Assembly (NCBI GenBank): GCA_036674765.1
Contig: JARVKI010000045.1
Span: forward strand, 62,001 to 126,000
DNA length: 64,000 nt
Direction: 5' to 3'
From: Seiridium cupressi
Taxonomy: Eukaryota; Ascomycota; Sordariomycetes; Amphisphaeriales; Sporocadaceae
A program made the position numbers and the translations under genes. Under the pieces are notes generated by a model. That model was not told the DNA's origin. It did not search any database and saw nothing but the letters and a program-made list of their open reading frames with translations. Shown in pieces: positions 1-45,833 of the stretch (the stretch's first letter is position 1; every line of letters begins with the position of its first letter).

Positions 1-2
1 AG

Positions 3-1389
3 GAAAACCCTAAAGATCCGCTGCACCACGGTAATGCACCTCACAACATTGTATCCGCTGGAAGAGAGTTCCATGCCACTATTAGGAGGGTACTCTCTCA
101 TGGGTTTTCCGCTCAAAACGTCATCAAGCAGCAGCCGTTGATGATCTCGTCAATCCGTCTTTTCATACAACGACTATATGAGCAAACTGCAGGGTTTTCG
201 CGCGAAGATTGTCCTCCAGTAGAGATGACCTCCTGGCTCAATTTTGTGAGCTTCGATGTCATGGGTGACTTGGCATTCGGGGAGACATTTGGCTGCCTAG
301 AACGGTCAGAGTATCATCCGTGGATCAAGCTGATCCATGCCAACGCCAAAAGGGCAACCTACTTGCTCGCGGCTGGACGAATCCCAATACTAGTACCGGT
401 CCTCCGCGTCTTATTCCGGAAACAGCTTGTACAGGCTGAGTACGATCTGAACAACTTCGTTCGCCAGAAAGTTGACCAGAGAATCCGCTTGAGTAGTGCG
501 CGTCCTGATCTAGCCGAGTCCTTGATCAAGGCCATGGATCGTCATGTACGTGAGCCACACATGTCCTGCCCTTCTGAATCTCGAAGAAAAAGAACCAATT
601 CTGAACAATGTCTTAGATCATAGATCGAGAGGCTGTCTATGAGAACTCGAAGGTGCTGCTCGCCGCTGGATCAGAAACAACTGCCACTGCGCTCATGGGT
701 GCAGTTTACCTTATCGCTGCCAATCAGGTGGCTAGGGAGAGGCTTAATACGGAAATACGCGCTGCCTTTGAGGCAGAAGAGCAAATCGATATCAAAACTA
801 CGGCCAACCTAAAATACTTGGCTGCAGTTATCGAAGAAAGCTTGCGACTATATCCACCCTCACCGCATGCATCGACACGCATCACGCCTCCGGGTGGTCA
901 GACAATCTTGGGAAGATGGGTACCCGAGAACGTGAGTGCTACCAATTCCTGCCCCGGACTAAAACTGAAAGTGTAATAGACTATACTGGGCCTTTGGCAG
1001 TGGGCCATCTACCACAACGACAGCATGTTCCACGAACCTTTCGAATTTCGGCCAGAGCGCTGGTTGAATGACCCGAAGTTCCAGAGCGACTGTAAGGATG
1101 TCTTCAAACCGTTTCACACTGGTCCGCGCAGCTGCTTAGGAGTCAAGTAAGTGACACTGGATTGAAATGTAACCTCTCGAAACACGGTACTAATCAAGTA
1201 ACATCGGACAGTCTTGCAAATGCTTTGATACGAGTCATTCTAGCCAGAATCATCTGGAGTTTTGATTTAGGCTTACCGCCAGAGGGTCGCGACTGGCTCC
1301 AGCGCGAGGACCACAAGATATTCATCGGATATACAAAGCCACTGCTGTTCCTCCGGCTCACACCACGTCAACCCGCCAGAGTGGAGTGA
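3..1389 (+). CDS. Cytochrome P450 monooxygenase, 5' truncated by window edge
   Basis: This is a heme-thiolate monooxygenase, of which about 400 C-terminal residues are visible. The reading frame is open from base 3, so the N-terminal membrane anchor lies outside the window. I read four exons: 3-545, 617-931, 980-1146 and 1212-1389. The diagnostic motifs appear in order: a helix-C region rich in R/F/S before base 140, the I-helix AGSETTA at about 662-682, ExxR in EESLRLYPP at about 833, the FRPERW motif at about 1045, and the heme loop FHTGPRSCLG at about 1111-1140 with its Cys ligand. It resembles the isotrichodermin C-15 hydroxylase/CYP65-like P450s common in fungal clusters (family knowledge). 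It lies 0.8 kb upstream of the FAD monooxygenase on the same strand, so a tailoring oxidation is likely; the substrate is unknown. The second intron is only 48 bp. Confidence 0.9.
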
Positions 1390-2177
1390 CGAAGCTGTTT
1401 GACGGGCTGAGACCCAGGAGTAGATAACATTTGCTGTTGTATAAGACGATATCGTGAAACGGTAATTGACGAGATTGCCCCGTAATCAGATGTCCTGAGG
1501 CTATGATATCGGGTTGCCAACTATGTCTCAGTTATTTCCCTTGAACTCTATAGATAAACTATCTCCATAACAGTACAATCAAGAACTATCGATGAATACC
1601 TAATGATTTTCGATTGATTGCTAGTTACTCACTCACTCATTTAACTGCCGCCTGTTTCGTCATTGGGTAAAAAGCACGGATCTTGTCTGCTACGATATTG
1701 AGCCATTTAGTAATCGGGTTTCGCTTTTATTATTATTTAGGGCCAAAACTCTTTAGTATGTTGTGGTCGTTGACGTATAATCTAGTTTGCAGGCAAGATG
1801 TATATGTCGATACGTCCAGGGCGAATGGGTGTTCGTTTAAATGAACAGCTGGCTTTATCCAGACCCCGAGAAACAGTGCAAAGTAATCGGAATCATACAC
1901 GAACGTTGATGTGTGTGAACTTACACCAGTGCGAAGAGATGGAAAACACAATGATTGAATTGGCGGTCGTTGGAAAAGTCCGGCCCCACCCCGGACTTAC
2001 ATTATTGTTCTCGGATTGGGATGTGGAATACACAAAGGTCTGTCATCCTATGCGATATCGACCCCTCCGCTTAGATTCACATATTGCACAGTAACGCCTA
2101 CCCGCGTGCAATCCTTTTAGGTGTTTGGCGCCTTGACCTACTTCAAACTCACTTCATCAGCTATCATCACTGCTATC
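1390..2177. other. Intergenic region between P450 and FAD monooxygenase
   Basis: This 788-bp stretch has no recognisable gene on either strand. Short open frames here lack family motifs. It presumably holds the P450 terminator and the promoter of the monooxygenase, but I cannot point to a specific site. Confidence 0.5.
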
Positions 2178-3674
2178 ATGTCGTTAGCGTCCGACCAGAC
2201 AACGGGTGGTTCACCCAATAGGACAGAATCGGGCGACACGCTCGGCAGCGCCCGATTGAAAATTGCTATTATAGGAAGTGGCATAATTGGCGTGATGACC
2301 GCTTTGGGCTTATTGCAGCGTGGCTTCGACGTAAAGATCTACGAGCAAGGCGCGAGCTTCCAGGAAGTAAGTGCCGGGTTCGCATTCACTGGTGTGGCAC
2401 GTGAATGCATGGAGCGTTTGAGTCCGTGCATCCTAGAGGCGTTGAAAAGGGTCGGAGAAGAGAACAAGCATCCACAGAATCGGTACTGGGACGGTTTCAG
2501 CAATAAACAGACAGCCCGAGACCAAGATTCTTTGCTCTTCCAGCTTTCCGCTCGCGACCTGGCTTACTGGGGTTGCCTCCGATCTTCTCTGCTTCGAGAG
2601 TTGGCGGCTGATCTTCCGCCAGGAGTCACCGAATTCAACAAGAAGCTGGTAAGCTGTATTGACAACGATAGTCAGGAAGCTGTTTTGCTGTCATTTGAGG
2701 ACGGCACCATTGCATTAGCAGATGCAGGTATGACAAGATAGAACGTGATCGCTGTGAAATTCTCTTACTAACTGACCACAGTCATCGGGTGTGATGGGAT
2801 CCACTCTCGGACGCGTCAACTAGTTCTGGGGGAGGATGATTCAGCCTCATACGCGAGCTACTCTCATCACACCGCCTATCGCGCGGTTTTGCCCATCGAC
2901 AAAGCAATTGCCGCAATCGGAAGTGATAAGGCAATGAATCAGTGCATACACATGGGTCCTGATGCAGCGATTGTGTCTTATCCCGTAAGTACATGATATC
3001 TACATTCAATCCTAATCCTGCGCACATCAATGCGGAATATTGTTAATACGGCAAAGGTCAGCAATTGGACACTCTGGAACGTGGCGATATTCGTACACGA
3101 TCCGGAAGAATGGCCCAATCCCAATTTGACTACGGTTAATGGCAGTCGGACCGAAGTGGAGACCGCCTTGAGAGAGTGGAGTGCAGATATACAACAAATT
3201 GCCAAGCAACTCCCAGAGTCTGTGACGAAGTGGGCCATCTTCGACATGGCCGACCACCCAGCACGTACATACGCTTGCGGTAGGGTTTGTGTGACAGGCG
3301 ATGCTGCACACGCGAGCAGCCCTTTCCAAGGTGCGGGAGCATGTATGGGCGTAGAAGATGCTCTCGTGGTCGCCACTACGCTGGAGGCGGCTTCGAAGAG
3401 AGCTGAGCAGAGACCTACACTAGGCATGGCGAGTGCCACTACCGCGGCGTTTGAGGCGTATAGTAGAGTCCGCATTGAGCGCTCGCAATGGCTCGTCAAA
3501 AGCTCACGCGAGACGGGAGACATGTATCAATGGAGGCTACCCACGACGAAGAATGACGCCAAAAAGTGCCACGCAGAGATGCAACAGCGAACAAGGATGA
3601 TTTGGGACTTTGACGTGCAAAGAATGGTTAATGATGCAGAAGCGGTTCTCGAGGAGGAGCTTTCTCGACGTTGA
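2178..3674 (+). CDS. FAD-dependent monooxygenase, salicylate-hydroxylase/dearomatase type (AfoD/AzaH/CazL-like)
   Basis: This is a class A flavoprotein hydroxylase of 456 aa from three exons: 2178-2727, 2782-2984 and 3057-3674. An N-terminal Rossmann motif GSGIIG (residues 33-38) binds FAD. A second motif, VIGCDGIHSRTR, begins exon 2. The conserved FAD-ribityl motif GDAAHASSPFQGAG lies near residue 332. I chose the ATG at 2178 because it places the Rossmann fold at the usual distance; an in-frame upstream codon at 2121 gives a less typical leader. In azaphilone and asperfuranone pathways such enzymes hydroxylate and dearomatise the aldehyde released by the NR-PKS (established for AfoD, AzaH and CazL). 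The position directly upstream of an NR-PKS with a reductive release domain fits that role. The exact substrate is inferred. Confidence 0.88.
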
Positions 3675-4795: not shown

Positions 4796-7700
4796 ATGAC
4801 TACTTCCCAACCACGTCCGCAGAAGAATGAGGTCCTTCTGTTTGGGCCGCAGGCCCTCCAATTTGACAGGCAATACTTGGAGAAACTTCGGAGAACGATT
4901 GCCACCGACCCTGATCAACGATGGATGCTACAGGTCGTTGGCGAGCTTCCAAGGTACTGGATTGCGTTGGCCAAAACATTGCCCGATCTGGCACATACTC
5001 TCCGTAATGAGCGAGTTGTCTTGGACCTAGGGGCTTGGCTTATGTCGGAAGATGACGTCGAGTTCCCATTCGGAGAAGCGGGCAACGCAGTACTTACGCC
5101 CCTTGTCGTACTACACCAACTCACCCAGTACTGGCAGTACGTTCAGAAGAAATATGGCGAAAGTCAAGCTAGCGGCACCACGGTCGATTCGCAAGCCGAG
5201 TTGGTGGCGACTCAGCAATATGGTTCCGAGACTCACTCTCTGGGACTATGTACAGGAATGCTTAGCTCCTTTGCTGTCTCTAGTGCGAAAAGTCGACTAG
5301 AATTTGAAAAGTATGGATCAGTTGCTGTCCGTTTGGCTATGCTCATCGGCGCTGTCGTCGACGCCGAAGAGTCTTCGAATCAAGCGCTCGGCCAAGGCAA
5401 GGCCACGTCCTTTGCCACTGCCTGGCATAACGACAAGGAGGAACAAGATTTTCGTCGTATCTTGGATAGTTCTTTTCCTGACACCTACATATCGGTACGC
5501 TATGACGAAGCACGCGCGACAGTGACTACGTCCGAGCATACTGCCGGAGAGCTACTGCAGCAACTTCGGGATGCTGGCATCACGGTTGCTGAGGTTGGTC
5601 TGAAGGGTCGCTTTCACAACCCGGACTCTGAAACCAGTCGTCATGCAGACGCGTTAGTTGCGCTCTGCGATGGTGATGCAACACTGCAGTTTGCCGAGCC
5701 CGATGAGTTGGCCTTTCCGAGTTATACGAATGCGGGCGACGGTGCACCAGTGTCGAAAAACGGCGAGAGTTTACATAAGCTGGCACTGCAAGCTATATTA
5801 ACTCAGCAATCGAACTGGTGTGCGACGTTCAAGGCTATCAATTCTTCTTGCATCGATGGACATGATGGGGCCAGAGTGGTGTCTTTCGGGCCTGATCGAT
5901 GCGTTCCACCCACATTCATCAGGTCTCTGAGTCCAAAGATCATCCACTCTTCTGGTCTGAACCATGAAGAACAGCAAAGTCACAATAGTCTGCTCGACCC
6001 GGGGTTGCCGTTCCAGAACTGGGACTCGACACGCGCTAGACCCTTGGATCACCAGGCGCAGCAGCACCGACTTGCAAGAAACGACGAGTCCATCGCTGTG
6101 GTGGGTATGTCTATAAAGGTCGCCGGTGCAGATGACTTGAACGAATTTTCGGACTTGCTCAGAACAGGTCTGTCGCAGCATGAACTCATAGGCGACGATC
6201 GCTTGATGCTTGACACCCTCTTCCGAGAAGGAGACAAGGACCCCGAACGGAAATGGTACGGAAACTTCGTGCGAGATCCAGGAGCTTTTGATCACAAATT
6301 CTTCAAGCGCAGCCCTCGCGAGTCATCTACGATGGACCCTCAGCAGCGCTTGTTCTTGCAGGCAGCATACCAAGCCGTCGAGCAATCAGGCTACTTCAAC
6401 GAGACGACTAGAAGTGACAATAGACGGAACAAAGAGCATGTTGGCGTCTACCTCGGCGCTTGTTCCGGCGATTGGGAGCACCATGCTGCCTGTCATACGG
6501 CAAATGCTTTTACAGCCACGGGCAATCTGAAGAGCTTTATCCCAGGTAAAGTGTCACACTACTTTGGGTGGACCGGCCCCTCAATAGCATTTGACACAGC
6601 ATGCTCCGCATCAGCAGTGGCTATCCACACAGCATGTCGCAACTTGCTTTCAGGCGAATGCACAGCTGCACTGGCTGGAGGGGTCGCCATGATGAGTAAC
6701 TTTCTCTGGTTTCAAAACTTAGCAGGCGCAAGTTTCTTAAGCCCCACGGGCCAATGCAAGCCTTTTGACGAGTCTGCCGACGGCTATTGTCGCGGCGAAG
6801 GTATCGCATGCGTATTTCTGAAGAAGATGTCTGACGCCCTGGCGGATGGCAATCCAATCCTAGGCTGCATCCCAAGCACTGCCGTCTACCAAAATCAGAA
6901 CTGCACTCCACTTTTTGTCCCGAACTCACCTTCGCTATCTCAACTGTTCACAGACGTTGTCCAGAATGCGAAGTTAAGCCCTCGAGACATCTCTCTAGTT
7001 GAAGCACACGGGACCGGAACTCCCGTAGGGGACCCAGCTGAGTACGAAAGTATTCGCATGTCACTCGGCGGCGGAAACCGCTTGGATACGCTGACTATCG
7101 GCTCGGTCAAAGGCCATATTGGCCATACTGAGGGCGCTTCAGGCGTCATTGCTTTGATCAAAGTTATCTTGATGATGCAGGGGAACTATATCCCCCCTCA
7201 GGCAAGCTTCTCGAAGATGAGCAGCCATATCAAAGTTACACCGGAGGATCACCTGGAAGTGGCCACATCTTTACGCTCGTGGAACCCAAAGTTCAAAGCC
7301 GCTCTCATCAATAACTACGGCGCAAGTGGATCCAACGCCTCCATGATTGTAACGCAACCTCCACAAGGATTTGATGGCCTGCCAACTGCTCCTATTCGGA
7401 ATTTCGCCGACAGCCAATCATTCCCTTTCTCTATCGCGGGCTTAGATGGTCGCGCGATTAGCTTGTATGCCGAAAAGCTGCTTAATTCCATTCGCTCTCG
7501 CCCCGATCTCAGGCTTGCGGATCTATCCTTCCAACTGAATCTACAGTCAAATCGCCGGCTCCTACAAAGGTCAATTTTCACTTGTCGCTCCATTGGGGAG
7601 TTGGAAGGCAAACTGTCCAAGTTGAGCTCTCAGTCTGACCAGCCGGGAAGTACCTTCAGTGCTGCAAAGCCCGAGAGGCCTGTAATTCTTTGCTTTGGGG

Positions 7701-10700
7701 GGCAGGTATCAACATTTGTTGGACTGGACGAGAAGCTGTACAACAGTATTTCAGTCCTGCGTCATCATCTGGATCGTTGTGATGCGGTTATACAGTCACT
7801 CGGACACAATACAATCTATCCGGATATCTATAGGCGGCAGCCAGTAAAAGACACGGTCAAGCTTCAGACTATGCTGTTCGCTCTGCAATACTCTTGCGCC
7901 AAGAGCTGGATGGACTGCGGTCTCGACGATAAAATTGTCGCTGTCGTCGGCCACAGCTTCGGTGAGCTTACGGCTTTATGCATCTCAGGTGTCTTAAGCC
8001 TGAAGGACGCAGTTAAACTTGTTGCGGGCCGGGCTCGACTGGTCCGTGACAACTGGGGCCCAGAATCCGGCGCCATGATGGCTGTAGACTCGGACGAGAC
8101 ATTGATCAATGAGCTTCTGAAGGAGTCAAACGCAAACTACGGCGGGGAGCACAAGGCTAGCATTGCTTGCTTCAACGGGCCCCGAAGCTTCACGCTGGCT
8201 GGTTCTGTCAGTGCCATAGACAGGGTCGATGCCACGATAGCAACTTCAGCAAGATTTTCGGGGATCAAGCACAAACGACTCAATGTGACCAATGCTTTTC
8301 ATTCAAGCCTGGTCGATCCTCTGATGGACAACTTAGAGCTGATCGGCAAGGAGCTCACCTTCAACGAGCCTTTCATTCCCTTTGAGCGTGCAACTGCGAC
8401 GGAACACACAGGCAGCCTTACGCCGAGATTCGTGCCCGACCACATGAGATCACCAGTATACTTCAATCATGCTGTCCAGCGGTTGTCACAGAAGTACTCG
8501 TCCGCGATTTTCCTCGAGGCTGGCTCGCAATCAACGATCACCCTTATGGCCAGTCGAGCGTTAGCTCACACCGCCGCGTCCAGTTCTTCCCATTTCCAAG
8601 CGCTCAATATTACAAACGACCATGGACTTGATGGGCTCACAGATGCCACCATATCCCTGTGGAAAGAGGGTGTGTCTGTCAGCTTTTGGGGTCACCACCA
8701 TCTTCAGTCGCACGAGTACCCACCGCTATTTCTACCACCCTATCAATTTGATAAAAGTACCAACCATTGGTTGGAACTCAAGTCGCCAGCAAAAGCTGTC
8801 GCGGATGCCGTGGCCTCTGCTACAGCTCGACAAGTGCTCGACCATCACTCTCATGGACTGGAAGATAAGGCGTCTCAACTCTGGACCTTCGTGGGATACA
8901 CCGACAGTGCTAGCAAGCGGCCCCGGTTTCGTATCAACACGGACTCGGCGTCTTACAAAGAGTACATCTCAGGACATTTGATAGCACAGACCGCACCAAT
9001 CTGCCCAGCCACCCTGGAAGTCGACATGGCCGTTGAAGCTCTATTTAGTTTGCATACAGAGTGGAGATCCACCGGGCTACAGCCCGTAGTTCACGACATG
9101 GTCAATCACGCACCCTTGTGCGTAGATCACTCACGCGTTGTGTGGCTCGATTTTCAGAACAAGGATGAGGACAGCACTCAATGGCTCTGGAAGATTACTA
9201 GCGAGGATGTCGGGTCTCCGCAAAACTCTCAGACCCACGTTGAGGCACGTATACATATCCGCGCATCAGCTGATGTGTCCTACATAGCCGAGTTTTCTCG
9301 GTTCGAACGACTGGTCGGGCATGCTAAATGTCTCTCGATGCTGTCACTAGATCTGAACAGCGGAAAAACTTTCGACGTTTTAACCGGCCGCAACGTCTAC
9401 CGCACTTTCAGCCCCGTCGTAGACTATGGTGAGCCTTACCGCTGTGTACAGGCCGTGGTTGGAGGGGATGACGAGTGCGCTGGTCTTGTTCACAAGCGCC
9501 ATACTGGTCAGACCTGGCTCGATGTGCTTCTCAGCGATAGTTTCAGTCAGGTTGGTGGCATATTCGTGAACTGCATGACGGATCACAGCCCGACTGACAT
9601 GTTCATCGCCACGGGATGCGAGTTGACCATGCGATCACCTCGAGTAGCCACCCAGCAGGGCCAAGAGGGTCCAAATGTATGGCATATTTATGCACGCCAT
9701 ACTCGACAATCCGAGAAATTATTCATTACAGACGTGTTTGTATTTAATGCCGCGAGCGGGGTGCTTACTGAGGTCATGATGGGTATCCAATATGCGAGGG
9801 TTGCGAAATCTTCAATGGCCAAGATGTTGACCAGGCTCACTAAGGACGAGTCTATGTTGAAGAATATCGTTCCCACTGCCCATAGTAAGCTCACTTCTGT
9901 GGTGAGTGCGGTCGAGAATCAGTCTCCCGATGCTCCATCTCCGAACCACGTTACTACGAGTAGCAGCGAAGCCCGTACGATCAAAGAAAAGATACCGGAG
10001 ACTGCTAAGAGCAAGAGCGGTAGCGCCAAGCCGAAGCACCCTGACATAACAGATGATGTCAGAAAGGTGGTCGCCAATGTTTCAGGCATTGAGGAAGACG
10101 AGATCGGGCTTGACTCTGAGATGGCCGATTTCGGTATCGACTCTCTTATGGGCATGGAGCTCGCTCGTGAAGTTGAGGTCATTTTCAAGTGTAAGCTGGA
10201 TCAGGATGAACTCATGGAAGCGACAAGTTTGCGCAAGTTTGTCGTGTGCATATCAAATGCCTTATTTGGACCCGTGACGGACAGCAGTGGCAGTGGAGAT
10301 CTAAGCGACGAGGGTGACGACAAATCCTGGTCCAGCGACAGCAAAGGTAGCACTACGGCGACATCCGTGCAGGAAGCGCATGAAGTTCTGCCCAAAGCAA
10401 ATGCAGTTGTATCGAACGGGCATGGAAGTACGACCGCCAAGTCCGATCTAGGCCCAGTTCACAACAATCTTGAACTGATACAACAGGACATCCTGGACGC
10501 ATTCGGAGAGGTCAAAATGCTTACTGATACCCACATCAAGAACTTTCATCTCGACAACATTGATAAAGTAATCATCGCTGCCACCAATCGTCTCAGTGCT
10601 ACATTAATCGTCGAAGCTTTTGACGAACTCGGCTCTCCATTACGAACAGCAATAGCAGGCGACGTGATAGACCCTGTCCCATATCTACCAAAGCATGACC

Positions 10701-12931
10701 GGCTGATGGACTTCATTTACACGTTCCTTGAATATGATGCCCGATTACTGGAAACTGACGCAGAAAGTGGGCGACTGATACGCACCGCTATTCCGGCGCC
10801 GCGCAAAAGCAGTGCGGCCATCCTTCAAGAGCTTCTCTCAAGCTATCCAGAGTTTTGTGTGGCTAATAAGTTGACATATTATGCTGGTAAACATCTGGCA
10901 GGAGTTCTAAGCGGCACGACCGATGGCATCAGAGCCCTTTTCGGTTCAATCGAGGGTCGAGAGCTGGTTCAAGACTTATATTACAACCATACTTTTAACC
11001 GGATGAACTATACTCAGATGCGGGATACTATCGCCGGCGTAGTCAAACGAATTAAGCCTTATCTACGCCATGAGCCTCTCAAGATCCTTGAAATGGGTGC
11101 CGGAACTGGCGGGACTACACACATTCTGGCCCCGTTCCTGCACTCCCTCGATATCCCCGTGGTATATACCTTTACGGACCTGTCTCCGTCCATGGTTGCA
11201 AATGCACGACGCAAGTTTGGAAAGCAATATTCTTTCATGCGATTTGAGACGCATGATATCGAAAAGCCACCCATTGACGCTCTAAAAGACCAACACATCA
11301 TTCTTGCAAGCAATGCGGTCCACGCTACGCATAACCTCGTCCAATCTTTAACGAATATACGCAAAGCACTACGTCCAGATGGTTTCCTGATGATCTTGGA
11401 GATGACAGAGAAGGCACCATTTATCGATGTTATCTTTGGTCTGCTAGAGGGCTGGTGGCTTTTTGATGACGGTCGTAAGCACGCTATCGTGCCTGAGGAG
11501 TATTGGGAACGTGAACTACATGCTTCCGGGTTCAGCCACGTCGATTGGACCGACGGCAACTTACCCGAGAACACCTTTCAGAAGGTGATGGTTGCATTTG
11601 CCTCTGGTCCAGTGCGCGAACGTCTGCCCAAGCCCGCTCCCACATCGGATGTCGCGGCCACTTTGCCTTCGGCGTTGAATGTCACAAGCAGGACGGAAAA
11701 GGCTGAGTCCTATATTATCAAGTACACCTCGGATTTTCCTCACTCTAAGTTGTCCTTTACGCCGAGAAGGGTCGATGGCCACGACTTGGCGGAGATCGGC
11801 GATGCAGTTGTTATTGTCACAGGAGCCACAGGAAGTCTCGGCGCACATACAGTCGCAGAGCTTGCCGAACGTCCATCTGTCAAATCCGTGGTATGCTTGA
11901 ACCGCCGCACCAGCAGCCCAGTCGAGACGCGACAGAAAGACGCGTTTTTGTCTCGTGGAATCGAACTCTCTGCAGCGGGTCAGGCCAAACTGCGTATCAT
12001 CGACGGGGACTCGTCTAAACAGCAACTCGGTTTGTCAGCCGACGACTACGACTGGCTCAGACAGCACGTCACGCACATAATACACAACGCTTGGCCGATG
12101 AGCGGAACTCGACCGCTGGGCAACTTTGAGCCACAATTCCAGACACTACGAAACCTGTTGACCCTTGCATTCGACATCGCGGCACGCGATCCCGGCAATA
12201 CGATTGGTTTCCAACTTGTCTCATCCATTGGCGTAGTGGGCCACTCTAGCGATAGGCGGGTACCTGAGACACCCGTGTCCATGCAGAGCGTTCTGCCAAT
12301 TGGTTACTGTGAGGCCAAGTGGGTCTGTGAGCGCATGCTAGACGAGACATTACACCAGCACCCTGAGCATTTCCGAACCATGGTCGTCCGACCTGGACAG
12401 ATTGCTGGTTCCAAGACCAGCGGATTCTGGAACCCTATCGAGCACTTCGCTTTCCTGGTCAAGTCAGCCCAGGCGCTGAGGGCCTGGCCCAACTTTGACG
12501 GCGTTTTGCAATGGATACCGGTCAACGATGTGGCTGGCACCATGGCGGACCTTCTTCACATCGAAAACCCGCGTGCTCCGAAGCCATATCTTGTATATCA
12601 CATCGACAACCCCATCGGCCAGCCATGGAAGGAGATGTCGCCCGTTGTGGCAGACGCGCTCGGCATCCCCAAGGACAGAATCATTCCGTTCCGGACCTGG
12701 GTCAGGCTCGTTCGCCACTCTCCCCTACACGCCGAGACCGACAATCCGGCCGCCAGACTTATTGACTTCTTGGACGGGAACTTTGAGCGGATGTCCTGTG
12801 GTGGCCTGATCCTGGATACAGCTCATTCCCAAGAGCATTCTAAAACCATGGCACACGCTCAGCCGGTAACCGAGGAAGTTGCACGGCGTTACATTGCCAG
12901 TTGGAAGAGAATGGGGTTTCTCAAGCCTTAG
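4796..12931 (+). CDS. Non-reducing polyketide synthase, SAT-KS-AT-PT-ACP-CMeT-R
   Basis: This is an intronless 2,711-aa iterative type I PKS. Domains and residues by position: SAT (about 1-390; GLCTG with Cys152, His274), KS (about 431-850; Cys603 in DTACSAS, His738 in EAHGTG, His777 in GHTEG), AT (Ser1054 in GHSFGE, His1169), PT (His1394, Asp1581), one ACP (Ser1783 in FGIDSLMG), C-methyltransferase (LEMGAGTGG at about 2098) and a C-terminal thioester reductase (TGATGSLG at about 2342, Tyr2504 and Lys2508 as YxxxK). There is no thioesterase, so the chain should be released reductively as an aldehyde. This architecture is that of AfoE, AzaA, CazM and Monascus PigA, which make methylated aromatic aldehydes for azaphilones and asperfuranone (family knowledge). 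The PT domain directs regiospecific aldol cyclisation. An intact SAT next to an HR-PKS allows a reduced starter unit. All catalytic residues checked are present. Confidence 0.96.
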   Translation: MTTSQPRPQKNEVLLFGPQALQFDRQYLEKLRRTIATDPDQRWMLQVVGELPRYWIALAKTLPDLAHTLRNERVVLDLGAWLMSEDDVEFPFGEAGNAVLTPLVVLHQLTQYWQYVQKKYGESQASGTTVDSQAELVATQQYGSETHSLGLCTGMLSSFAVSSAKSRLEFEKYGSVAVRLAMLIGAVVDAEESSNQALGQGKATSFATAWHNDKEEQDFRRILDSSFPDTYISVRYDEARATVTTSEHTAGELLQQLRDAGITVAEVGLKGRFHNPDSETSRHADALVALCDGDATLQFAEPDELAFPSYTNAGDGAPVSKNGESLHKLALQAILTQQSNWCATFKAINSSCIDGHDGARVVSFGPDRCVPPTFIRSLSPKIIHSSGLNHEEQQSHNSLLDPGLPFQNWDSTRARPLDHQAQQHRLARNDESIAVVGMSIKVAGADDLNEFSDLLRTGLSQHELIGDDRLMLDTLFREGDKDPERKWYGNFVRDPGAFDHKFFKRSPRESSTMDPQQRLFLQAAYQAVEQSGYFNETTRSDNRRNKEHVGVYLGACSGDWEHHAACHTANAFTATGNLKSFIPGKVSHYFGWTGPSIAFDTACSASAVAIHTACRNLLSGECTAALAGGVAMMSNFLWFQNLAGASFLSPTGQCKPFDESADGYCRGEGIACVFLKKMSDALADGNPILGCIPSTAVYQNQNCTPLFVPNSPSLSQLFTDVVQNAKLSPRDISLVEAHGTGTPVGDPAEYESIRMSLGGGNRLDTLTIGSVKGHIGHTEGASGVIALIKVILMMQGNYIPPQASFSKMSSHIKVTPEDHLEVATSLRSWNPKFKAALINNYGASGSNASMIVTQPPQGFDGLPTAPIRNFADSQSFPFSIAGLDGRAISLYAEKLLNSIRSRPDLRLADLSFQLNLQSNRRLLQRSIFTCRSIGELEGKLSKLSSQSDQPGSTFSAAKPERPVILCFGGQVSTFVGLDEKLYNSISVLRHHLDRCDAVIQSLGHNTIYPDIYRRQPVKDTVKLQTMLFALQYSCAKSWMDCGLDDKIVAVVGHSFGELTALCISGVLSLKDAVKLVAGRARLVRDNWGPESGAMMAVDSDETLINELLKESNANYGGEHKASIACFNGPRSFTLAGSVSAIDRVDATIATSARFSGIKHKRLNVTNAFHSSLVDPLMDNLELIGKELTFNEPFIPFERATATEHTGSLTPRFVPDHMRSPVYFNHAVQRLSQKYSSAIFLEAGSQSTITLMASRALAHTAASSSSHFQALNITNDHGLDGLTDATISLWKEGVSVSFWGHHHLQSHEYPPLFLPPYQFDKSTNHWLELKSPAKAVADAVASATARQVLDHHSHGLEDKASQLWTFVGYTDSASKRPRFRINTDSASYKEYISGHLIAQTAPICPATLEVDMAVEALFSLHTEWRSTGLQPVVHDMVNHAPLCVDHSRVVWLDFQNKDEDSTQWLWKITSEDVGSPQNSQTHVEARIHIRASADVSYIAEFSRFERLVGHAKCLSMLSLDLNSGKTFDVLTGRNVYRTFSPVVDYGEPYRCVQAVVGGDDECAGLVHKRHTGQTWLDVLLSDSFSQVGGIFVNCMTDHSPTDMFIATGCELTMRSPRVATQQGQEGPNVWHIYARHTRQSEKLFITDVFVFNAASGVLTEVMMGIQYARVAKSSMAKMLTRLTKDESMLKNIVPTAHSKLTSVVSAVENQSPDAPSPNHVTTSSSEARTIKEKIPETAKSKSGSAKPKHPDITDDVRKVVANVSGIEEDEIGLDSEMADFGIDSLMGMELAREVEVIFKCKLDQDELMEATSLRKFVVCISNALFGPVTDSSGSGDLSDEGDDKSWSSDSKGSTTATSVQEAHEVLPKANAVVSNGHGSTTAKSDLGPVHNNLELIQQDILDAFGEVKMLTDTHIKNFHLDNIDKVIIAATNRLSATLIVEAFDELGSPLRTAIAGDVIDPVPYLPKHDRLMDFIYTFLEYDARLLETDAESGRLIRTAIPAPRKSSAAILQELLSSYPEFCVANKLTYYAGKHLAGVLSGTTDGIRALFGSIEGRELVQDLYYNHTFNRMNYTQMRDTIAGVVKRIKPYLRHEPLKILEMGAGTGGTTHILAPFLHSLDIPVVYTFTDLSPSMVANARRKFGKQYSFMRFETHDIEKPPIDALKDQHIILASNAVHATHNLVQSLTNIRKALRPDGFLMILEMTEKAPFIDVIFGLLEGWWLFDDGRKHAIVPEEYWERELHASGFSHVDWTDGNLPENTFQKVMVAFASGPVRERLPKPAPTSDVAATLPSALNVTSRTEKAESYIIKYTSDFPHSKLSFTPRRVDGHDLAEIGDAVVIVTGATGSLGAHTVAELAERPSVKSVVCLNRRTSSPVETRQKDAFLSRGIELSAAGQAKLRIIDGDSSKQQLGLSADDYDWLRQHVTHIIHNAWPMSGTRPLGNFEPQFQTLRNLLTLAFDIAARDPGNTIGFQLVSSIGVVGHSSDRRVPETPVSMQSVLPIGYCEAKWVCERMLDETLHQHPEHFRTMVVRPGQIAGSKTSGFWNPIEHFAFLVKSAQALRAWPNFDGVLQWIPVNDVAGTMADLLHIENPRAPKPYLVYHIDNPIGQPWKEMSPVVADALGIPKDRIIPFRTWVRLVRHSPLHAETDNPAARLIDFLDGNFERMSCGGLILDTAHSQEHSKTMAHAQPVTEEVARRYIASWKRMGFLKP

Positions 12932-13724: not shown

Positions 13725-14538
13725 TCATGTATGTTCTGGCCGATCCATCCAAACCATACTAGTCAGGTGTGTGGTGATCCTCCAGGGATTCTGACCTTGC
13801 GGCTCTAGATCTTCAAATCTTGCAAGAACAAACTCATACTTTCCCTACTCGAAGCCATTGGTTAGAGACGGTATTCCTTTAATAGCTGGCGCTTATATGC
13901 CATGTGCAATGGGGAAATTTACGGGAAATTCACGGACAATACACGGTGATGTGCATGAACTTACTCCGTTACGCATCACCAACTGGGATGGTTTTCCCTC
14001 GGCATCCTTCTCGTAGAACACGGCATGCGCATATGCGGTTACGTTACACAGATCCGGAGCCAGATAGTTGATATCGGGAGTAGGCTGTGGAAGATCGATC
14101 AAAATGTTTCTACGTATCGAGCAGATGTCAGAAGATTAGGCACCCAACCTACTATTTTGAAAAGAAAAAATGGTCTGTGATGCGGGTAATATCTGGAAAG
14201 GCTTACAGCACGCTATGTTGCATCGACTCAAAAGGGGCATGCAGTCTGTCCAACTCACTCGCCAAAGCCTCTCTTGACATTACTTGTGGTGGATTTTCTG
14301 GAGATGTATCATAACCAGTGACGACGTCAGCTGCGTACACCAATTCCATGGCTGTCAGGTCCACCATAGCATCAAAGCTATGGACCTGCTACAGTGTCAG
14401 CTTTCGCCAGTTTGAAACGCAGATATCAGAAGATGCTGAGGGGATAAACGCGTATGCATCACTCACCAGTCGTACAACGGTGTCATGGATATTGGCCCGA
14501 TCCAGCAAGAATTTCTCAACGTTGTATGAAGCTGTCAT
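13725..14538 (-). CDS. SnoaL-like (NTF2-fold) polyketide cyclase/isomerase-type protein
   Basis: This is a four-exon gene read on the minus strand: 14538-14467, 14385-14207, 14109-13965 and 13838-13725. The frames close exactly to 169 aa, and every junction uses GT-AG. The protein starts MTASYNVEKFLLDRANIHDT and then has a helix-rich segment containing SFDAMVDL. A strand segment with MQHSVLNILIDL follows, then AYAHAVFYEK and the late motif NPWRITTHLTSMVWM. That pattern (aqueous His near QH, hydrophobic strands, late W-R-I) is typical of SnoaL-like/NTF2-fold proteins, which in clusters act as cyclases, isomerases or dehydratases (family knowledge). No single exon is longer than 60 codons, so simple open-frame scans miss it. 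It is convergent with the NR-PKS and divergent from the Zn2Cys6 regulator. The reaction catalysed is unknown. An earlier start at 14583 is possible but adds an atypical leader. Confidence 0.75.
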
Positions 14539-18331: not shown

Positions 18332-18901
18332 TTGTTGTTTGATAGCCCACAAGCGCCGGTCCCTATTCATAGCGTGCATTAGCTTAGCGGGTTTTAATAT
18401 GACTAGATACCAATATTTCCACTCACGTTCAAGAGGTCACCGTAATTCATCTGACTTTGCTATTTTATGTATTTCAGTGATCGTTGCCAATGGACTACTC
18501 AATGAACGGTAATTAATGGCTATCAGGATTTGATTACCGTCTCTGTTTGTATTGGTTTGTATCTATTTATACTTTCTCGGATTTGTCGTATCGGTAGCGC
18601 TTTACTATCTAACTTTCATCAATTTATAGTTGTTGGAGGTAATCTGCCGTCACAGGTGAGGAGCTGTAACCTCGAGGGCGCTGTGATCTATAGGCTACGA
18701 AAAAGATCTTGTAGATTAAGAACATATTTGAATTGGTGGTGCACACCTTTGCAACGATCAACCACACGCTTGTGCAAGAAAAAAAAGGGCGAAAGCCAAG
18801 CGCCAGAGCCGAGACGCGAGAGCCGAGATCTGGCTCTTTCACAATGTATGGAAGCTTGCGGGCAAGGCCGGCCCGCTTTCCCGTTATGGGCCTAGGCCGT
18901 C

Positions 18902-25810: not shown

Positions 25811-25839
25811 CTTGACAATACATGTTTTGACACTATAAT

Positions 25840-30509: not shown

Positions 30510-31859
30510 CTAGCCAACATGTTTCATGTAGCGCCTCCATTCGGGGTCTTTCTTCAGATCAATAATGTCTTTCTCTGGTAAACAGAGCGCGATTGGAACA
30601 CTACCATCTTCAACCATGCTGATAGAGATTGAACCCGGAATTGGTGTCGACCTGGGGCGACGAAAGAATCGAGCTACGCCCAGAGCGGGCCCAAACTTCA
30701 GTGGCCAGTCGCCAGAGCCAATAATGGTTGATGTTGCGCCTAGATCAGTATTAGGATTGGTGACACCGCCGTACAGCAAGGTAGACTTGTCGGGCTCTCG
30801 TGCTACGAAGGTGGCATAACTCCGTACCGCCCACTCGTTGTTCGCAGCATTGAGCTCGCGCCGTAGCAACTGCGCGAGCTTGTGGAGAGGCGCCGAGACG
30901 AGCTCCCCGAGACGCAATCTCGCAATCGCATGGCAAACAACGTGGCCCATGTAGCTCATGGGAACACCTACGACTGGTCTCACGTCAATTGGTCGGTGAA
31001 ACTGTGATATTGTGCTACTCGTGAATTGTTTTCCACCTCGTGTGAGCCGAATCGCACTGATGCGCTGCCAGCAGAACGCACACAAGGCATCGTTTTCGGA
31101 GATAAGCTGGGACTGTGAGGACGCTTCCCTTTTCAATACAGCCACCCTTGACGCTGGAATCTTGAAAAGGCACCACGTAGGTGCAGATTCGGGGGCTTGA
31201 TACATGAACCCAGGCGGTCGACGTAGGTGACTATGCTCTTTAACTGGTTCGCTCCTTGACAACAATTTGACCACAGAGCTCCTGTCGCGGTTGGCCTGCT
31301 CAATATCAGCAGACGAGAGCCTGCCGCCGTTTAAGATTGTTGCTAGATGTAGGATAAACTGCACCGCCGCTGTGCCGTCCATGACGATGTGGTGAAAGCA
31401 CATTGTAAGGATGAGGCCGTTTTCGAGGAAGTTTGCTTGCAGCGCCACGATGGGTACCGGTGGCGACAACTTGTGGCCCTCGCTCAAACCAGGAAATGGC
31501 GAGAGCAATTTCGAGTCTAATCGCTCCATGGGTACACTCTCACGTAGAAGTTGGTCCATAGACGGGAGGAGGTCTTTGCAGTCTTTGACCCGAAGAATGA
31601 GATTTTCGGGGGCATCGGCAGGCCATGGCGCTGGTTTGAGTATGCCTGCGCTCCCTCCTTCGCGGGCAACTTGGCCGCCTAACCATGGTATCTGCGTGAC
31701 CATTTCGGCTATTGCGCCCTTGATTGCTTCAACAACGCTCGAACGAGGTGTCTCGGGTGTTAATTGGAAGCCAATAAGCAGTTGAGTATGGCCGTTCAGC
31801 GCCGGGAACTGGGACATGACATCTTGAAATAGGCTTTCTGCTCGAGGTGTGTCTGCCAT
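30510..31859 (-). CDS. BAHD/trichothecene 3-O-acetyltransferase-type acyltransferase (AzaD/CazE-like)
   Basis: This is an intronless 449-aa CoA-dependent O-acyltransferase. The catalytic HxxxD motif is HHIVMDG (His157, Asp161). The second family motif (DFGWG) is represented by a degenerate SGDWPLKFGPALG near the C-terminus. In azanigerone and chaetoviridin pathways similar enzymes esterify the bicyclic core with a chain made by the HR-PKS (AzaD, CazE; family knowledge). This gene is divergently arranged with the HR-PKS across 1.75 kb, which fits that partnership. Whether the donor is a polyketide or acetyl-CoA cannot be told from sequence. Confidence 0.88.
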   Translation of the reverse strand: MADTPRAESLFQDVMSQFPALNGHTQLLIGFQLTPETPRSSVVEAIKGAIAEMVTQIPWLGGQVAREGGSAGILKPAPWPADAPENLILRVKDCKDLLPSMDQLLRESVPMERLDSKLLSPFPGLSEGHKLSPPVPIVALQANFLENGLILTMCFHHIVMDGTAAVQFILHLATILNGGRLSSADIEQANRDRSSVVKLLSRSEPVKEHSHLRRPPGFMYQAPESAPTWCLFKIPASRVAVLKREASSQSQLISENDALCAFCWQRISAIRLTRGGKQFTSSTISQFHRPIDVRPVVGVPMSYMGHVVCHAIARLRLGELVSAPLHKLAQLLRRELNAANNEWAVRSYATFVAREPDKSTLLYGGVTNPNTDLGATSTIIGSGDWPLKFGPALGVARFFRRPRSTPIPGSISISMVEDGSVPIALCLPEKDIIDLKKDPEWRRYMKHVG

Positions 31860-42849: not shown

Positions 42850-44362
42850 ATGTCTGAGATAGTTGGCCGGTACGAATGCGCTCCAGCGCAAAATCTTTCT
42901 CCCTTAGGCCAGCCCCTGAATTTCGGATATTCAGGACAGATTGCGAAAAATAGATTTCTCAAAACTGCGATGGCTGAGACCTTAGCAACATGGCATGATA
43001 CCGACCTGAAAGCGCGAGGACATCCTACCGAGGGATACGTCAGACTGTATTCACAGTAAGTCCTGGATCGTCGCTTGTATGTGACATGAGTTGACGTGGT
43101 ATCACTTAGATGGGGCAAGGGCGGTTACGGAATGATCATCACCGGGCAAACAGACGTCGACAACAAGCTTTGCAACATGGGTTGCCCTACTATCGGACTC
43201 GAGGATGAACTGACAGAGCCTAAATTCGACGAGTTCAAGCGAGTTGCTAGTGCTGCCACAGCTGAAGGAAGTCTAATACTAGCTCAAATATCACACGTTG
43301 GAAGACAACTTGATACTCGAGTTAGTAGTGACACCATAAGCGCCTCTGAGCAAGACTTAGGTATGGAGACCCAGCAGTCGCGGACAGAACTAATCGTTCA
43401 CGTTCAGTGTTTAGTAGCACTGAATATGTGATACACCACACCATAGTTATTCATGGCTGACTCGTCGAACTGCAGATGACAAATTAGGTATGACGTTTGC
43501 CAAGACCCATGAGGCCACGAAAGCCGATATACAGCGTGTCATTGAAAGTTTTGCCCATGCTGCGTGGTTTCTCGATAAAGCAGGATTCTCGGGTGTTCAG
43601 CTCCATGGTGCCCATGGATTTCTCATATCTAGCTTCCTGTCTCGAAGCACCAACCATCGCATAGATGAATACGGCGGGAGCTTAGAAAATCGCATGCGAC
43701 TCATTATCGAAATCGCAGCAGCAATACGCAATCGCGTACCGCCTAAATTTATTCTTGGCATCAAGATTAATAGTGTCGAGTTTGAAGCCAATGGGTTCAC
43801 AGCTGATGAGGCGAAAGTCCTGTGCCAGACTCTAGAGCAACATCATTTCGATTTTGTTGAGCTGACTGGGGGTACATGCGAAGATTTGGGCTTAGTTCAC
43901 ACCAAGACAAGCACACTGAAGCGAGAGGCTTTTTTTCTGGAGTTTGCGGAAAGCATTGTACCAGTCCTGAAGAACACTAAGTGCTACATCACTGGTGGTA
44001 TCCGCACAGCTCCAGCAATGGTCGAGATCCTCCAAGTCGTTGATGGTATCGGGCTCGGCCGCCCCGCCGCACAGGAGCCGAATTTTCCCAGTGGTATTCT
44101 GTCTGGAAAGATCGGAAGCGCTGCCAAACCTATTTCTGCCATCGAACACAACCAACATGTGTCGCTCGCCTGTGCTGGCGGTCAGATATTACAGCTGTCC
44201 AAGGACGTTGAACCAGTCGATATAAGCGACCCAGCTGTTGCAAATGGTGTATACAAACAGCTAATTGCATGGACAACGGCGCCAGTTCATGAAAGACCCT
44301 ATCTGGGCTGGCCACGGCTGCCTACTACTACTACACAAAGATCTACTGCGGCCCTGGAATGA
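42850..44362 (+). CDS. NADH:flavin oxidoreductase, old yellow enzyme family
   Basis: This is a 447-aa FMN-dependent ene-reductase-type TIM barrel. Exons 42850-43055, 43110-43360 and 43476-44362 close in frame. Features include QISHVGRQ in exon 2 and the signature GVQLHGAHGFLISSFLS followed by NHRIDEYGGSLENRMRL in exon 3, with the conserved His/Gly/Arg of the substrate and FMN sites. The C-terminus carries GLGRPAAQEP for FMN phosphate. OYE members reduce activated C=C bonds or catalyse related demethylation/oxidation steps. It is tandem to the HR-PKS and may act on the enone system of a dearomatised product (inference). Confidence 0.9.
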
Positions 44363-44912
44363 CGGATGTATACATAGTAATTCATGCGCCTACATAAGTT
44401 AATCCAAACAACAAAAAACCAGCCATCGCTAGCTAAGCTCTACTAGCTCTTTCATCATTCGAATAGATGCTCTTTTCTCAAGCAAATCAAAGTTGTCATT
44501 TTATGCAGGCAATTTTATAACGTACGGGATCAGGTTACAAGTTAGCTGCTTATGCCACATAAAAGACTTCGGGCTGGATAGTCTCGACAGTCTTCGGCTG
44601 GTGGCAGCATGAGACTTGCTTATGTTTACGTCTTACCAGTATTACATCCCTTATATTGCGGTGAAGCAAATGAATGGACAAGATTGCTGGAAAAGAAACT
44701 CCGACAACTTTCCCAGCCTCTTTAATTACTCCCAGTCAGCGTGCCATAGTTCTTTCTATAAATGATTTCATAGCGATAACATGGATGAGCCGCTTCTAAC
44801 GTCGAAAAGGCGACACAATCAAATGTTCTAAAAGCTTGCAGCTTTGTACAGCTTGACCTCGGTCAACCTTTCTTCCTAGCGACCCAGAGAGGCTCAGAGT
44901 ATCACCCAGTTA
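44363..44912. other. Intergenic region upstream of the NmrA-like gene
   Basis: This 550-bp gap shows no gene. Confidence 0.5.
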
Positions 44913-45833
44913 ATGATGCTCGTCTTGGTCGTCGGAATCACAGGCGATTTCGGCCAGCGCTTGGCTCGAGAGGCACTGGCTCGTGGCCTCCGGGTTCGCG
45001 GGCTTGGTCGCAACCCTGCCAAGCTGAACGATGACATCTCAGCAAGACTCGAATCTTTCATCACCAGCGATTCTATTTACGATATTCCAGCTCTAGATAG
45101 AGGTGTTTCCGGAGTTGATGCCGTTGTGTGCGCATACCAGGCGACTCCTCTTCTATGGCTGGACGGCAGCCTACTGCTGCTCCGAGCCGCCGAGCGCGCC
45201 CAGATCAAGATATTTGTCGCTTCATCCTGGAACAGCGACTGGACGAACCTTTCTTACGGAGACTTTGAGCTCTATGACAGCATGATCGCCTTCCGAGACA
45301 CGGTGGAGAAGACAAGCCCTATACGACCAGTCTATGTCATTAATGGTTTCTTCGCTGACTATCTCTTTGTCTCGGTCCCAGGCGGTCCGTTCGAAGACGA
45401 CGGCTATTCCATGAAGGTTCATTACTGGGGAGACATGCTTGACGTAAGATTCCCATGGGTATTTGAAGACGATAGCGCTTCCTGGACTATCGACCTTATC
45501 TTACAAGATGAAAATGTACGAGATGGGCAGGGAGGGATTTTCAAGTTTATTGGCGGGACGAACTCATTGAAAGACCATATAAAGACTTACGAGGGGGTGA
45601 CGGGTGCGATGGTCGAGTGTGTCTGCGATGGAAGCAGGGAAGATTTGGAAGAGGCAGTGCAACTCGCCAGAAAAGAGAAGGGAAAATCAAGATGGATGGA
45701 GTATATGTGGTTAGCTTGGTGCCGTATTGCCCTGAAGGGATTGTGGGAGATCCATGGTGATACAACGCCCCCGAAGGGTGGGAGACCCTCAGCGACTGTT
45801 GTAGAGCACTTCATGAAACGCTTTTCCCAGTAG
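44913..45833 (+). CDS. NmrA-like/isoflavone-reductase-like NAD(P)-dependent protein
   Basis: This is an intronless 306-aa atypical SDR. The N-terminal cofactor motif VVGITGDFGQ is of the GxxGxxG type, and the second strand ends RGLGRNPAKL, whose basic residues suggest NADPH. There is no YxxxK in the classical place, as is usual for NmrA/isoflavone-reductase-like proteins. The C-terminal half has SWTIDLILQDENVRDGQGG, typical of this fold. Members act as reductases or as redox-sensing regulators; in fungal clusters they are usually tailoring reductases. It is the last plus-strand gene before the apparent right border, and pathway membership is uncertain. Confidence 0.82.
   Translation: MMLVLVVGITGDFGQRLAREALARGLRVRGLGRNPAKLNDDISARLESFITSDSIYDIPALDRGVSGVDAVVCAYQATPLLWLDGSLLLLRAAERAQIKIFVASSWNSDWTNLSYGDFELYDSMIAFRDTVEKTSPIRPVYVINGFFADYLFVSVPGGPFEDDGYSMKVHYWGDMLDVRFPWVFEDDSASWTIDLILQDENVRDGQGGIFKFIGGTNSLKDHIKTYEGVTGAMVECVCDGSREDLEEAVQLARKEKGKSRWMEYMWLAWCRIALKGLWEIHGDTTPPKGGRPSATVVEHFMKRFSQ

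What the first reader, a model, noticed from the sequence alone, without database searches (positions are those of the whole stretch)
3..45833. Two-PKS cluster of azaphilone type with an unusual tailoring set
Seen: NR-PKS ending in a reductase domain, dearomatase-type FAD monooxygenase, HR-PKS with all reducing domains and CMeT, HxxxD acyltransferase and FSH1 hydrolase. This core is shared with azanigerone, chaetoviridin, Monascus pigment and asperfuranone clusters (established). The added SnoaL-like protein, OYE, AKR, NmrA-like, secreted beta-lactamase-like protein and SIT transporter are a combination I do not recall. The berberine-bridge-type FAD oxidase common in those clusters (AzaG, AfoF, PigF) is not visible, so pyran/quinone oxidation may differ or be done by the P450 or an off-window gene.
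Basis: partly seen in the sequence, partly recalled or inferred. Interest (0 to 1): 0.8.

Follow-up and report, generated by a model that had tools for sequence, protein, structure and literature searches.

The report
Azaphilone cluster with translocon-protein gene copy
This stretch of the cypress-canker fungus Seiridium cupressi holds a fairly standard set of genes for making an azaphilone-type compound, but beside them, apparently under the same control signal, sits a second, altered copy of a gene for a basic membrane-protein insertion factor, which hints at what the compound might act on or how the fungus protects itself.

Summary
This is a two-PKS azaphilone-type cluster of Seiridium cupressi (the HR-PKS is 100% identical to a record on a contig of the same 338,051 bp). 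All five published azaphilone core proteins are present. The FMO is nearest AfoD but carries Tyr at the stereo-switch residue (TropB 239), predicting an R product. No PF01565 oxidase was found on the contig.

The beta-lactamase is not unique: it groups with Fusarium/Ilyonectria/Verticillium proteins, 4 of 13 of which share a contig with a PKS. HR-PKS and beta-lactamase trees, and a reduced NR-PKS tree, place Seiridium beside that lineage; nine of its NR-PKSs begin at the KS, without SAT.

New: the cluster runs past 45.8 kb. CGGA(C/G)TTT lies upstream of 13 of 19 genes examined, including an SDR and a divergent second Pho88/SND3 gene (46664-47286; 43% identical to the other copy, C-tail missing). 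A published Verticillium nubilum cluster lists an 'inorganic phosphate transport' gene, which I read as the same kind.

Verdict: ordinary azaphilone core, new variant of a known kind. The SND3 copy is a testable self-resistance or accessory candidate on weak evidence. Product unknown.

The parts
1..1498 (+). Cytochrome P450 (gene begins at -413, left of the window)
   Evidence: PF00067 183 bits on spliced model; CGGASTTT at -708
2178..3674 (+). FAD-dependent monooxygenase, dearomatase type, AfoD-like, Tyr at TropB position 239
   Evidence: PDB search: AfoD 453, TropB 326, SorC 290 bits; residues; site 1975
4796..12931 (+). NR-PKS, SAT-KS-AT-PT-ACP-CMeT-R
   Evidence: Pfam; motifs; 96% identical to S. 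cardinale, 60% to LijE; SAT like CazM; site 4374
13725..14690 (-). SnoaL_4-domain protein; exon model and start uncertain
   Evidence: PF13577 32.9 bits; site 14858
16104..18512 (+). Zn2Cys6 transcription factor TF1; 3' end uncertain
   Evidence: PF00172, PF04082; no CGGASTTT within 800 bp
20632..22559 (-). Secreted beta-lactamase-like serine hydrolase, 600-aa class
   Evidence: PF00144; SISK, YSN, KSG conserved; fold; clade; site 22808 shared with MFS
23077..25443 (+). MFS transporter; SIT class not proven
   Evidence: PF07690 47.5 bits
26306..27070 (+). Short-chain dehydrogenase SDR1
   Evidence: PF23441/PF00106; site 25885
27547..28554 (-). Aldo-keto reductase
   Evidence: PF00248 154 bits; no CGGASTTT within 800 bp
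29205..30062 (-). FSH1 serine hydrolase (AfoC/AzaC/CitA role)
   Evidence: PF03959; GFSQG
30510..31859 (-). HxxxD O-acyltransferase (AzaD/CazE role)
   Evidence: PF22664/PF02458; HIVMD; nearest solved: trichothecene 3-O-acetyltransferase 168 bits
33607..41726 (+). HR-PKS, KS-AT-DH-CMeT-ER-KR-ACP
   Evidence: Pfam; 100% identical to S. cupressi P0211, 2606 aa; sites 33236, 33307
42850..44362 (+). OYE-type FMN oxidoreductase; model approximate
   Evidence: PF00724 125 bits; site 42418
44913..45833 (+). NmrA-like NAD(P)-binding protein
   Evidence: PF05368; site 44696
46664..47286 (+). SND3L: divergent second copy of Pho88/SND3, 157 aa, exons 46664-46683, 46768-46928, 46994-47286
   Evidence: PF10032 148 bits; other copy on C67, 43% identical; site 46422, 242 bp upstream
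47879..48798 (+). Short-chain dehydrogenase SDR2
   Evidence: PF00106 146 bits; site 47673, 206 bp upstream
61804..64000 (+). Zn2Cys6 transcription factor TF2, optional member (runs past the window end)
   Evidence: PF00172, PF04082; CGGASTTT 38 and 382 bp upstream

Best explanation
This is a two-PKS azaphilone-type biosynthetic cluster of Seiridium cupressi, about 51 kb (-2.5 to 48.8 kb). Gene content, catalytic motifs and relationships are shown; the chemistry is inferred from characterised azaphilone pathways. The HR-PKS builds a reduced, C-methylated acyl chain. The CazM-like SAT loads it on the NR-PKS, which extends, C-methylates and cyclises it; the reductase releases a benzaldehyde, with FSH1 editing stalled chains. 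The AfoD-type FMO hydroxylates and dearomatises the ring (R predicted from Tyr at TropB position 239) and the pyran closes. The HxxxD transferase acylates the new tertiary alcohol, perhaps with a second HR-PKS product as in chaetoviridin. P450, SDRs, AKR, OYE and NmrA protein modify ring and side chain in place of the missing PF01565 oxidase. The secreted beta-lactamase-like hydrolase does a late deacylation or acyl transfer. A regulator that binds CGGA(C/G)TTT drives most genes, and with them a divergent Pho88/SND3 copy that is an accessory or protective factor.
For: Five core proteins of PMC8596599 present; catalytic motifs intact; NR-PKS 60% to LijE, 54-55% to AfoE record and P. sclerotiorum; FMO 453 bits to AfoD against 326 TropB and 290 SorC; SAT matches CazM SAT alone among solved structures; HR-PKS and beta-lactamase trees and the 21-row NR-PKS tree agree on the sister lineage; CGGASTTT at 13 of 19 promoters against 1 of 50 random and 3 of 29 same-contig ones, 14 sites where about 2.4 are expected, and 3 of 3 promoters not used for discovery carry it.
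Against: No product or expression data. The 44-row NR-PKS tree does not resolve the place of the window. AzaA, CitS, CazM, TropA and SorB were not in the NR-PKS trees. Six of 19 promoters (TF1, AKR, FSH1, AT, the far P450, FkbM) lack the motif, though AKR, FSH1 and AT lie inside the cluster, and the motif is also upstream of an ankyrin gene at 54 kb; 200 control sets gave best p-values within a factor of four.
Confidence: 0.78

Rival explanations
1. A dearomatised product of another class (sorbicillinoid or tropolone) rather than an azaphilone.
For: The same FMO family serves all three classes (TropB and SorC also match); two-PKS sorbicillin clusters exist (recalled).
Against: FMO is 128-163 bits nearer AfoD. 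No PF03171 dioxygenase (TropC type, recalled) among 41 matches lies on C45, and no PF01565 oxidase (SorD type, recalled) among 78. NR-PKS is nearest LijE among named enzymes in the list.
Confidence: 0.08
2. Azanigerone-type division of labour: the NR-PKS starts from acetate and the HR-PKS chain is used only as the ester group put on by the HxxxD transferase.
For: A transferase is present, as in azanigerone; the asperfuranone cluster has none in the review table. Nine sister NR-PKSs have no SAT.
Against: The SAT is intact and its only solved match is CazM's, which takes an HR-PKS chain; the NR-PKS is closer to AfoE/LijE records. AzaA itself was not compared.
Confidence: 0.2
3. The SND3 copy is a bystander: an old divergent paralogue at the cluster's edge with no part in making or tolerating the compound.
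For: Loss of the C-tail and a more basic N-claw suggest it may not work like SND3; four of six groove changes are about what 43% identity gives; Dactylonectria, of the same lineage, was not the best match of the V. nubilum gene; yeast PHO88 is not essential (recalled).
Against: Intact frame with both introns kept, lies between NmrA and SDR2 genes that carry the motif, and has the motif itself 242 bp upstream; an 'inorganic phosphate transport' gene is listed in a V. nubilum cluster.
Confidence: 0.4
4. The SND3 copy helps to insert the pathway's own ER membrane proteins (P450, transporter) rather than giving resistance.
For: SND3 is a membrane insertase (PMC12572126); the cluster has a P450 and an MFS protein.
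Against: No precedent known to me; the copy lacks the C-tail that contacts CCDC47 and the ribosome together with other cytosolic elements.
Confidence: 0.15

Closest known systems
Lijiquinone cluster (LijE, Ascomycota sp. F53 / Muyocopron) and the lijiquinone-like V. nubilum cluster VNR-PKS-I-4 (PMC9495618)
   Same: Two PKSs, serine hydrolase, dehydrogenases; NR-PKS 60% identical to LijE; V. nubilum lists a second hydrolase and an 'inorganic phosphate transport' gene
   Different: V. nubilum has an O-methyltransferase and an oxidase listed; its NR-PKS is reported without SAT. The lij paper (PMC7415360) is not held, so its gene list was not seen
Asperfuranone (afo)
   Same: HR-PKS + NR-PKS-R + FSH1 + AfoD-type FMO
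   Different: No AfoF-type PF01565 oxidase on the contig; acyltransferase present; FMO has Tyr, not Phe, at position 239
Chaetoviridin (caz)
   Same: HR-PKS + NR-PKS with SAT, FMO, O-acyltransferase
   Different: FSH1 present here, absent in caz; no halogenase matched in the models scanned, but none was searched for by family
Azanigerone (aza)
   Same: Five core proteins
   Different: AzaA uses acetate and AzaB feeds only the ester; PF01565 oxidases AzaG/AzaL (recalled) are missing here
Fusarium/Ilyonectria/Dactylonectria/Verticillium PKS pair with beta-lactamase (uncharacterised)
   Same: HR-PKS and beta-lactamase sister groups; 4 of 13 beta-lactamases share a contig with a PKS
   Different: Their NR-PKSs begin at the KS (9 of 11 short ones printed); the Seiridium enzyme has an intact SAT
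Fungal SND3/Pho88 (Chaetomium thermophilum, PDB 9I78)
   Same: PF10032 over the whole length; 111 bits to 9I78; Q101 and Q124 of the groove kept
   Different: S41T, N42H, S100G, S135N; no C-tail; N-claw net +3 against 0 in the C67 copy

Membership tests
Azaphilone biosynthetic cluster | NR-PKS SAT-KS-AT-PT-ACP-(CMeT)-R | tested here: met
Azaphilone biosynthetic cluster | HR-PKS (or FAS) in the same locus | tested here: met
Azaphilone biosynthetic cluster | Dearomatising FMO of the AzaH/AfoD kind with the anchoring Arg (TropB 206) | tested here: met
Azaphilone biosynthetic cluster | Serine hydrolase and O-acyltransferase (common, not obligatory) | tested here: met
Azaphilone biosynthetic cluster | NR-PKS inside the azaphilone clade | tested here: inconclusive
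   60% to LijE, 54-55% to AfoE record and P. sclerotiorum enzyme; 44-row tree unresolved, 21-row tree SH-aLRT 95 with the SAT-less lineage; AzaA, CitS, CazM, TropA, SorB not included
Azaphilone biosynthetic cluster | Pyranoquinone product | not testable with these tools
   needs expression and structure
Asperfuranone | AfoF-type PF01565 oxidase | tested here: not met
   78 PF01565 matches, none on C45
Tropolone cluster | TropC-type 2OG/Fe dioxygenase (PF03171) beside the FMO | tested here: not met
   41 matches, none on C45
Self-resistance gene (target duplicate) | Second copy of a housekeeping gene in the cluster, other copy elsewhere | tested here: met
   PF10032 on C45 and C67 only
Self-resistance gene (target duplicate) | Co-regulation with the cluster | tested here: inconclusive
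   motif 242 bp upstream, no expression data
Self-resistance gene (target duplicate) | Copy keeps the function of the target and gives tolerance | not testable with these tools
   C-tail missing argues against full function
Class C beta-lactamase/PBP hydrolase | SxxK, YxN and KTG-like motifs and fold | tested here: met
   S110/K113, Y237/N239, K374/G376; fold

The most novel reading that the evidence does not exclude
The azaphilone of this lineage acts on the fungal SND3 multipass-translocon insertase (or a partner of it), and the cluster-borne, co-regulated, altered SND3 copy protects the producer. It would be a first compound-target link for the SND pathway, as far as my limited searches show, and would explain why such a gene sits in azaphilone clusters of Seiridium and, if my reading of the published list is right, Verticillium nubilum.
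Probability: 0.15. Interest if true: 0.82.

Novelty: new variant of a known kind. Interest (0 to 1): 0.5.

Why it matters
The azaphilone core itself is one more of a large set: a cblaster search in PMC8596599 found 193 candidate clusters, 185 of them orphans. What deserves a look: (1) a second SND3/Pho88 copy that appears to share the cluster's promoter signal, which makes the compound's target, or a need for extra ER insertion, directly testable; (2) a secreted class-C-type hydrolase found with this PKS pair in Seiridium, Fusarium, Ilyonectria and Verticillium, suggesting a late step outside the cell; (3) a sister lineage whose NR-PKS records begin at the KS while the Seiridium enzyme keeps its SAT, a natural experiment on starter loading; (4) an AfoD-like FMO with the opposite stereo-switch residue, a sharp prediction.

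Tried and rejected
Tried without result: spaced CGG/CCG palindromes in promoters, none enriched (the half-site came). AlphaFold on P0121 alone, pLDDT 35.5, not used; with 41 sequences 85.0. PDB search with FSH1, no match. Papers: no azaphilone gene cluster of Seiridium was seen in one search (20 of 6,579 listed) or 73 (5 of 5 listed, one opened for passages: seiridins, seiricuprolide, seiricardines); no link of Pho88/SND3 to a natural product was seen in searches (20 listed of 386, 36 and 502).

Considered and rejected: an off-window PF01565 oxidase on this contig; tropolone and sorbicillinoid classes; the right-hand Pho88 gene as a plain housekeeping boundary (my first reading, dropped).

Weak points: the 44-row NR-PKS tree is unresolved; the 21-row tree is a chosen subset by a short search with SH-aLRT only. 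The HR-PKS tree is also 'quick', and the program warned that the place of long rows such as P0121 in the beta-lactamase tree is unsure. Linkage of beta-lactamase and PKS rests on equal contig lengths and locus-tag numbers: 4 of 13 clade members; of the other 9, six are on contigs of 9-14 kb and three on larger ones (90 kb, 2.8 Mb, 3.3 Mb) without a PKS row of equal contig length in lists capped at 120. The V. nubilum gene is called only 'inorganic phosphate transport'; that it is Pho88 is my reading. Promoter starts for SnoaL, OYE and FMO are model-based. SND3L and SDR2 were printed beside the discovery list but not used for ranking. BLA and MFS share one site, so 13 promoters are 12 units.

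Recalled, from no call: AzaG/AzaL/PigF and SorD as PF01565 oxidases, TropC as PF03171, the label SorA for P0323, ClbP as a prodrug peptidase, PHO88 not essential in yeast, and the by-eye names of flanking genes.
Full report
WHAT AND WHERE. The window is C45:62001-126000 of a 45.4-Mb genome in 228 contigs. The HR-PKS is 100% identical, over 97% of the query, to a Seiridium cupressi protein whose contig has exactly the length of C45, 338,051 bp. The NR-PKS is 96% identical to one of S. cardinale. The organism is therefore taken as S. cupressi. The public beta-lactamase P0121 differs from the window's by one residue. Gene models come from a small gene finder written here and retrained on this genome, corrected by ORFs and Pfam; ends of small genes are uncertain. 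Window coordinates are used; negative numbers lie left of base 1.

OBSERVATION. On alignments the NR-PKS shows SAT Cys and His, KS Cys, AT Ser, PT His and Asp, ACP Ser and the reductase nucleotide site; the HR-PKS shows KS, AT, CMeT, KR and ACP motifs. The berberine-bridge-type oxidase is missing beyond the window too: 78 PF01565 matches in the genome, none on C45.

FAMILY. Williams et al. 2021 (PMC8596599; sections 2 and 3 read) propose five proteins for azaphilone mining: NR-PKS, HR-PKS, serine hydrolase, FMO and O-acyltransferase. All five are here. The NR-PKS is 60% identical to LijE and 54-55% to an AfoE record and the P. sclerotiorum enzyme; AzaA and AfoE are 46% identical in that review. 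The SAT finds one solved relative, the CazM SAT. The FMO scores 453 bits against AfoD, 326 against TropB, 290 against SorC. At TropB positions 206, 239 and 250 it has Arg, Tyr and Ala; AfoD has Phe at 239 and 250. PMC10789314 (passages) reports that Y239 promotes R and F239 promotes S, with AzaH an exception; an R product is predicted with that caution. Tropolone- and sorbicillin-type partners were not found on the contig.

LINEAGE. The HR-PKS tree of 37 rows puts S. cupressi beside Ilyonectria, Verticillium and Fusarium (SH-aLRT 100), and the beta-lactamase tree of 31 rows groups it with the same genera (100/100; the program warns that the place of long rows, P0121 among them, is unsure). The NR-PKS tree of 44 rows does not resolve it; a 21-row subset puts it with Dactylonectria, Verticillium and Fusarium at 95. 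Of 13 non-Seiridium beta-lactamases of that clade (P0122-P0134), 4 share a contig with a PKS hit, judged by equal contig length: Ilyonectria (HR-PKS), Fusarium VM40 (NR-PKS, tags 039350 and 039410), V. albo-atrum (HR-PKS, 004335 and 004333), Fusarium DS 682 (HR-PKS, 004225 and 004227). For the other 9 no shared contig was seen; six of these are on contigs of 9-14 kb. V. albo-atrum's NR-PKS is on another contig than its HR-PKS. In the three Hypoxylaceae strains compared (FL0890, FL1857, Parahypoxylon) the 41-42% relatives lie on other contigs than the PKSs. So the beta-lactamase looks like a lineage trait. Of 11 short NR-PKSs printed, 9 (Dactylonectria, Verticillium, Fusarium) begin at the KS; whether a separate SAT gene exists was not tested. 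The three of these that were aligned keep the PT His and Asp, whereas PMC9495618 (passages and section 15 read) reports both SAT and PT missing in V. nubilum.

BETA-LACTAMASE. It has a hydrophobic N-terminus and SISK, YSN and KSG motifs, invariant or nearly so in 41 aligned proteins. A model with mean pLDDT 85 matches, at 14-20% identity, Lip3 DL-peptidase, esterase IS11, R61 DD-peptidase, AmpC and ClbP; the match is to the class-C part, TM-score 0.39-0.45 by query length. A late hydrolysis or acyl transfer outside the cell is the likely role, by inference.

REGULON. A search of 12 core promoter groups for 7-mers, 8-mers and gapped patterns ranked a poly-A pattern first and AAACTCC, AAACTCCG and AAAGTCCG next. 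Merged as CGGA(C/G)TTT they mark 13 of 19 promoters of 500 bp from -5.2 to 48 kb, against 1 of 50 in 20 random 10-kb regions and 3 of 29 elsewhere on the contig: an ankyrin gene, TF2 and a weak model. In a like-for-like scan it was the cluster's best pattern (9 of 12 promoters) and its p-value lay beyond the best of each of 200 control sets, the nearest within a factor of four. The genome has 2,229 sites in 45.36 Mb, so about 2.4 are expected from -1.5 to 48 kb; 14 are there. Three promoters not used for discovery, SDR0 (-2481..-1471), SND3L and SDR2, each carry a site 136-242 bp upstream. TF1, AKR, FSH1, AT, the far P450 (-4712) and the FkbM methyltransferase lack it; the site at 19814 belongs to no gene that I can name. 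The sites suggest a cluster from about -2.5 to 48.8 kb.

SND3 COPY. Gene 46664-47286 matches Pho88 PF10032 at 148 bits. The genome search gave one other gene, on C67; fetched, it gives a 192-aa model. The two are 43% identical over 158 columns. Against C. thermophilum SND3 (9I78) the C67 copy scores 300 bits, the cluster copy 111. Exon lengths are 20/161/293 against 23/161/395: introns are kept, so it is no retrocopy. The cluster copy ends at KRPF, without the C-tail. Of six groove residues named in PMC12572126 (outline, passages and section 10 read), four differ in the cluster copy (S41T, N42H, S100G, S135N) and none in the C67 copy, read off the alignments; at 43% identity that is about chance. 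The N-claw, negative in C. thermophilum, has net charge +3 here and 0 in the C67 copy. A V. nubilum lijiquinone-like cluster lists an 'inorganic phosphate transport' gene 42% identical to a Scedosporium protein; I read it as Pho88 but have not seen its sequence, and Dactylonectria, of the same lineage, is not named as its match. Readings: protection or target duplicate; help for the pathway's membrane proteins; bystander. The lost tail argues against a simple drop-in replacement. I give self-resistance 0.15.

CONCLUSION. An azaphilone-type cluster, new variant of a known kind, product unassigned. PMC8403587 (passages and section 18) shows that two-PKS azaphilone clusters with varied tailoring genes are usual in the related Hypoxylaceae.

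Noticed in passing
window 16419-16742: In-frame tandem duplication of a 162-bp unit (135 of 162 bases alike, 10 silent and 13 amino-acid-changing codon differences) in the linker of TF1.
   Followed up: partly
window 61804-64190: A second Zn2Cys6 regulator (TF2) with two CGGASTTT sites 38 and 382 bp upstream; it may also belong to the regulon although it lies 13 kb away.
   Followed up: partly
window 50112-54247, minus: Long ankyrin-repeat protein with one CGGASTTT site about 490 bp upstream.
   Followed up: no
L012, window coordinates -6255 to -3028: FkbM-type methyltransferase and a P450 in divergent order; their shared promoter has only CGGAGTTA, not the full motif, so membership is open.
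   Followed up: partly
P0025, P0039, P0075, P0085, P0086, P0093, P0101, P0107, P0108: NR-PKS records of Dactylonectria, Verticillium and Fusarium begin at the KS without SAT, beside a HR-PKS/beta-lactamase pair in some; how their starter is loaded is unknown.
   Followed up: partly
left of the window, -14183 to -10401: By eye, proteins like a glutathione S-transferase, mitochondrial acyl carrier protein and complex I NDUFS8 (names recalled, no search) suggest housekeeping DNA left of the cluster.
   Followed up: no
window 19814: One CGGASTTT site between TF1 and the beta-lactamase gene with no gene model beside it.
   Followed up: no
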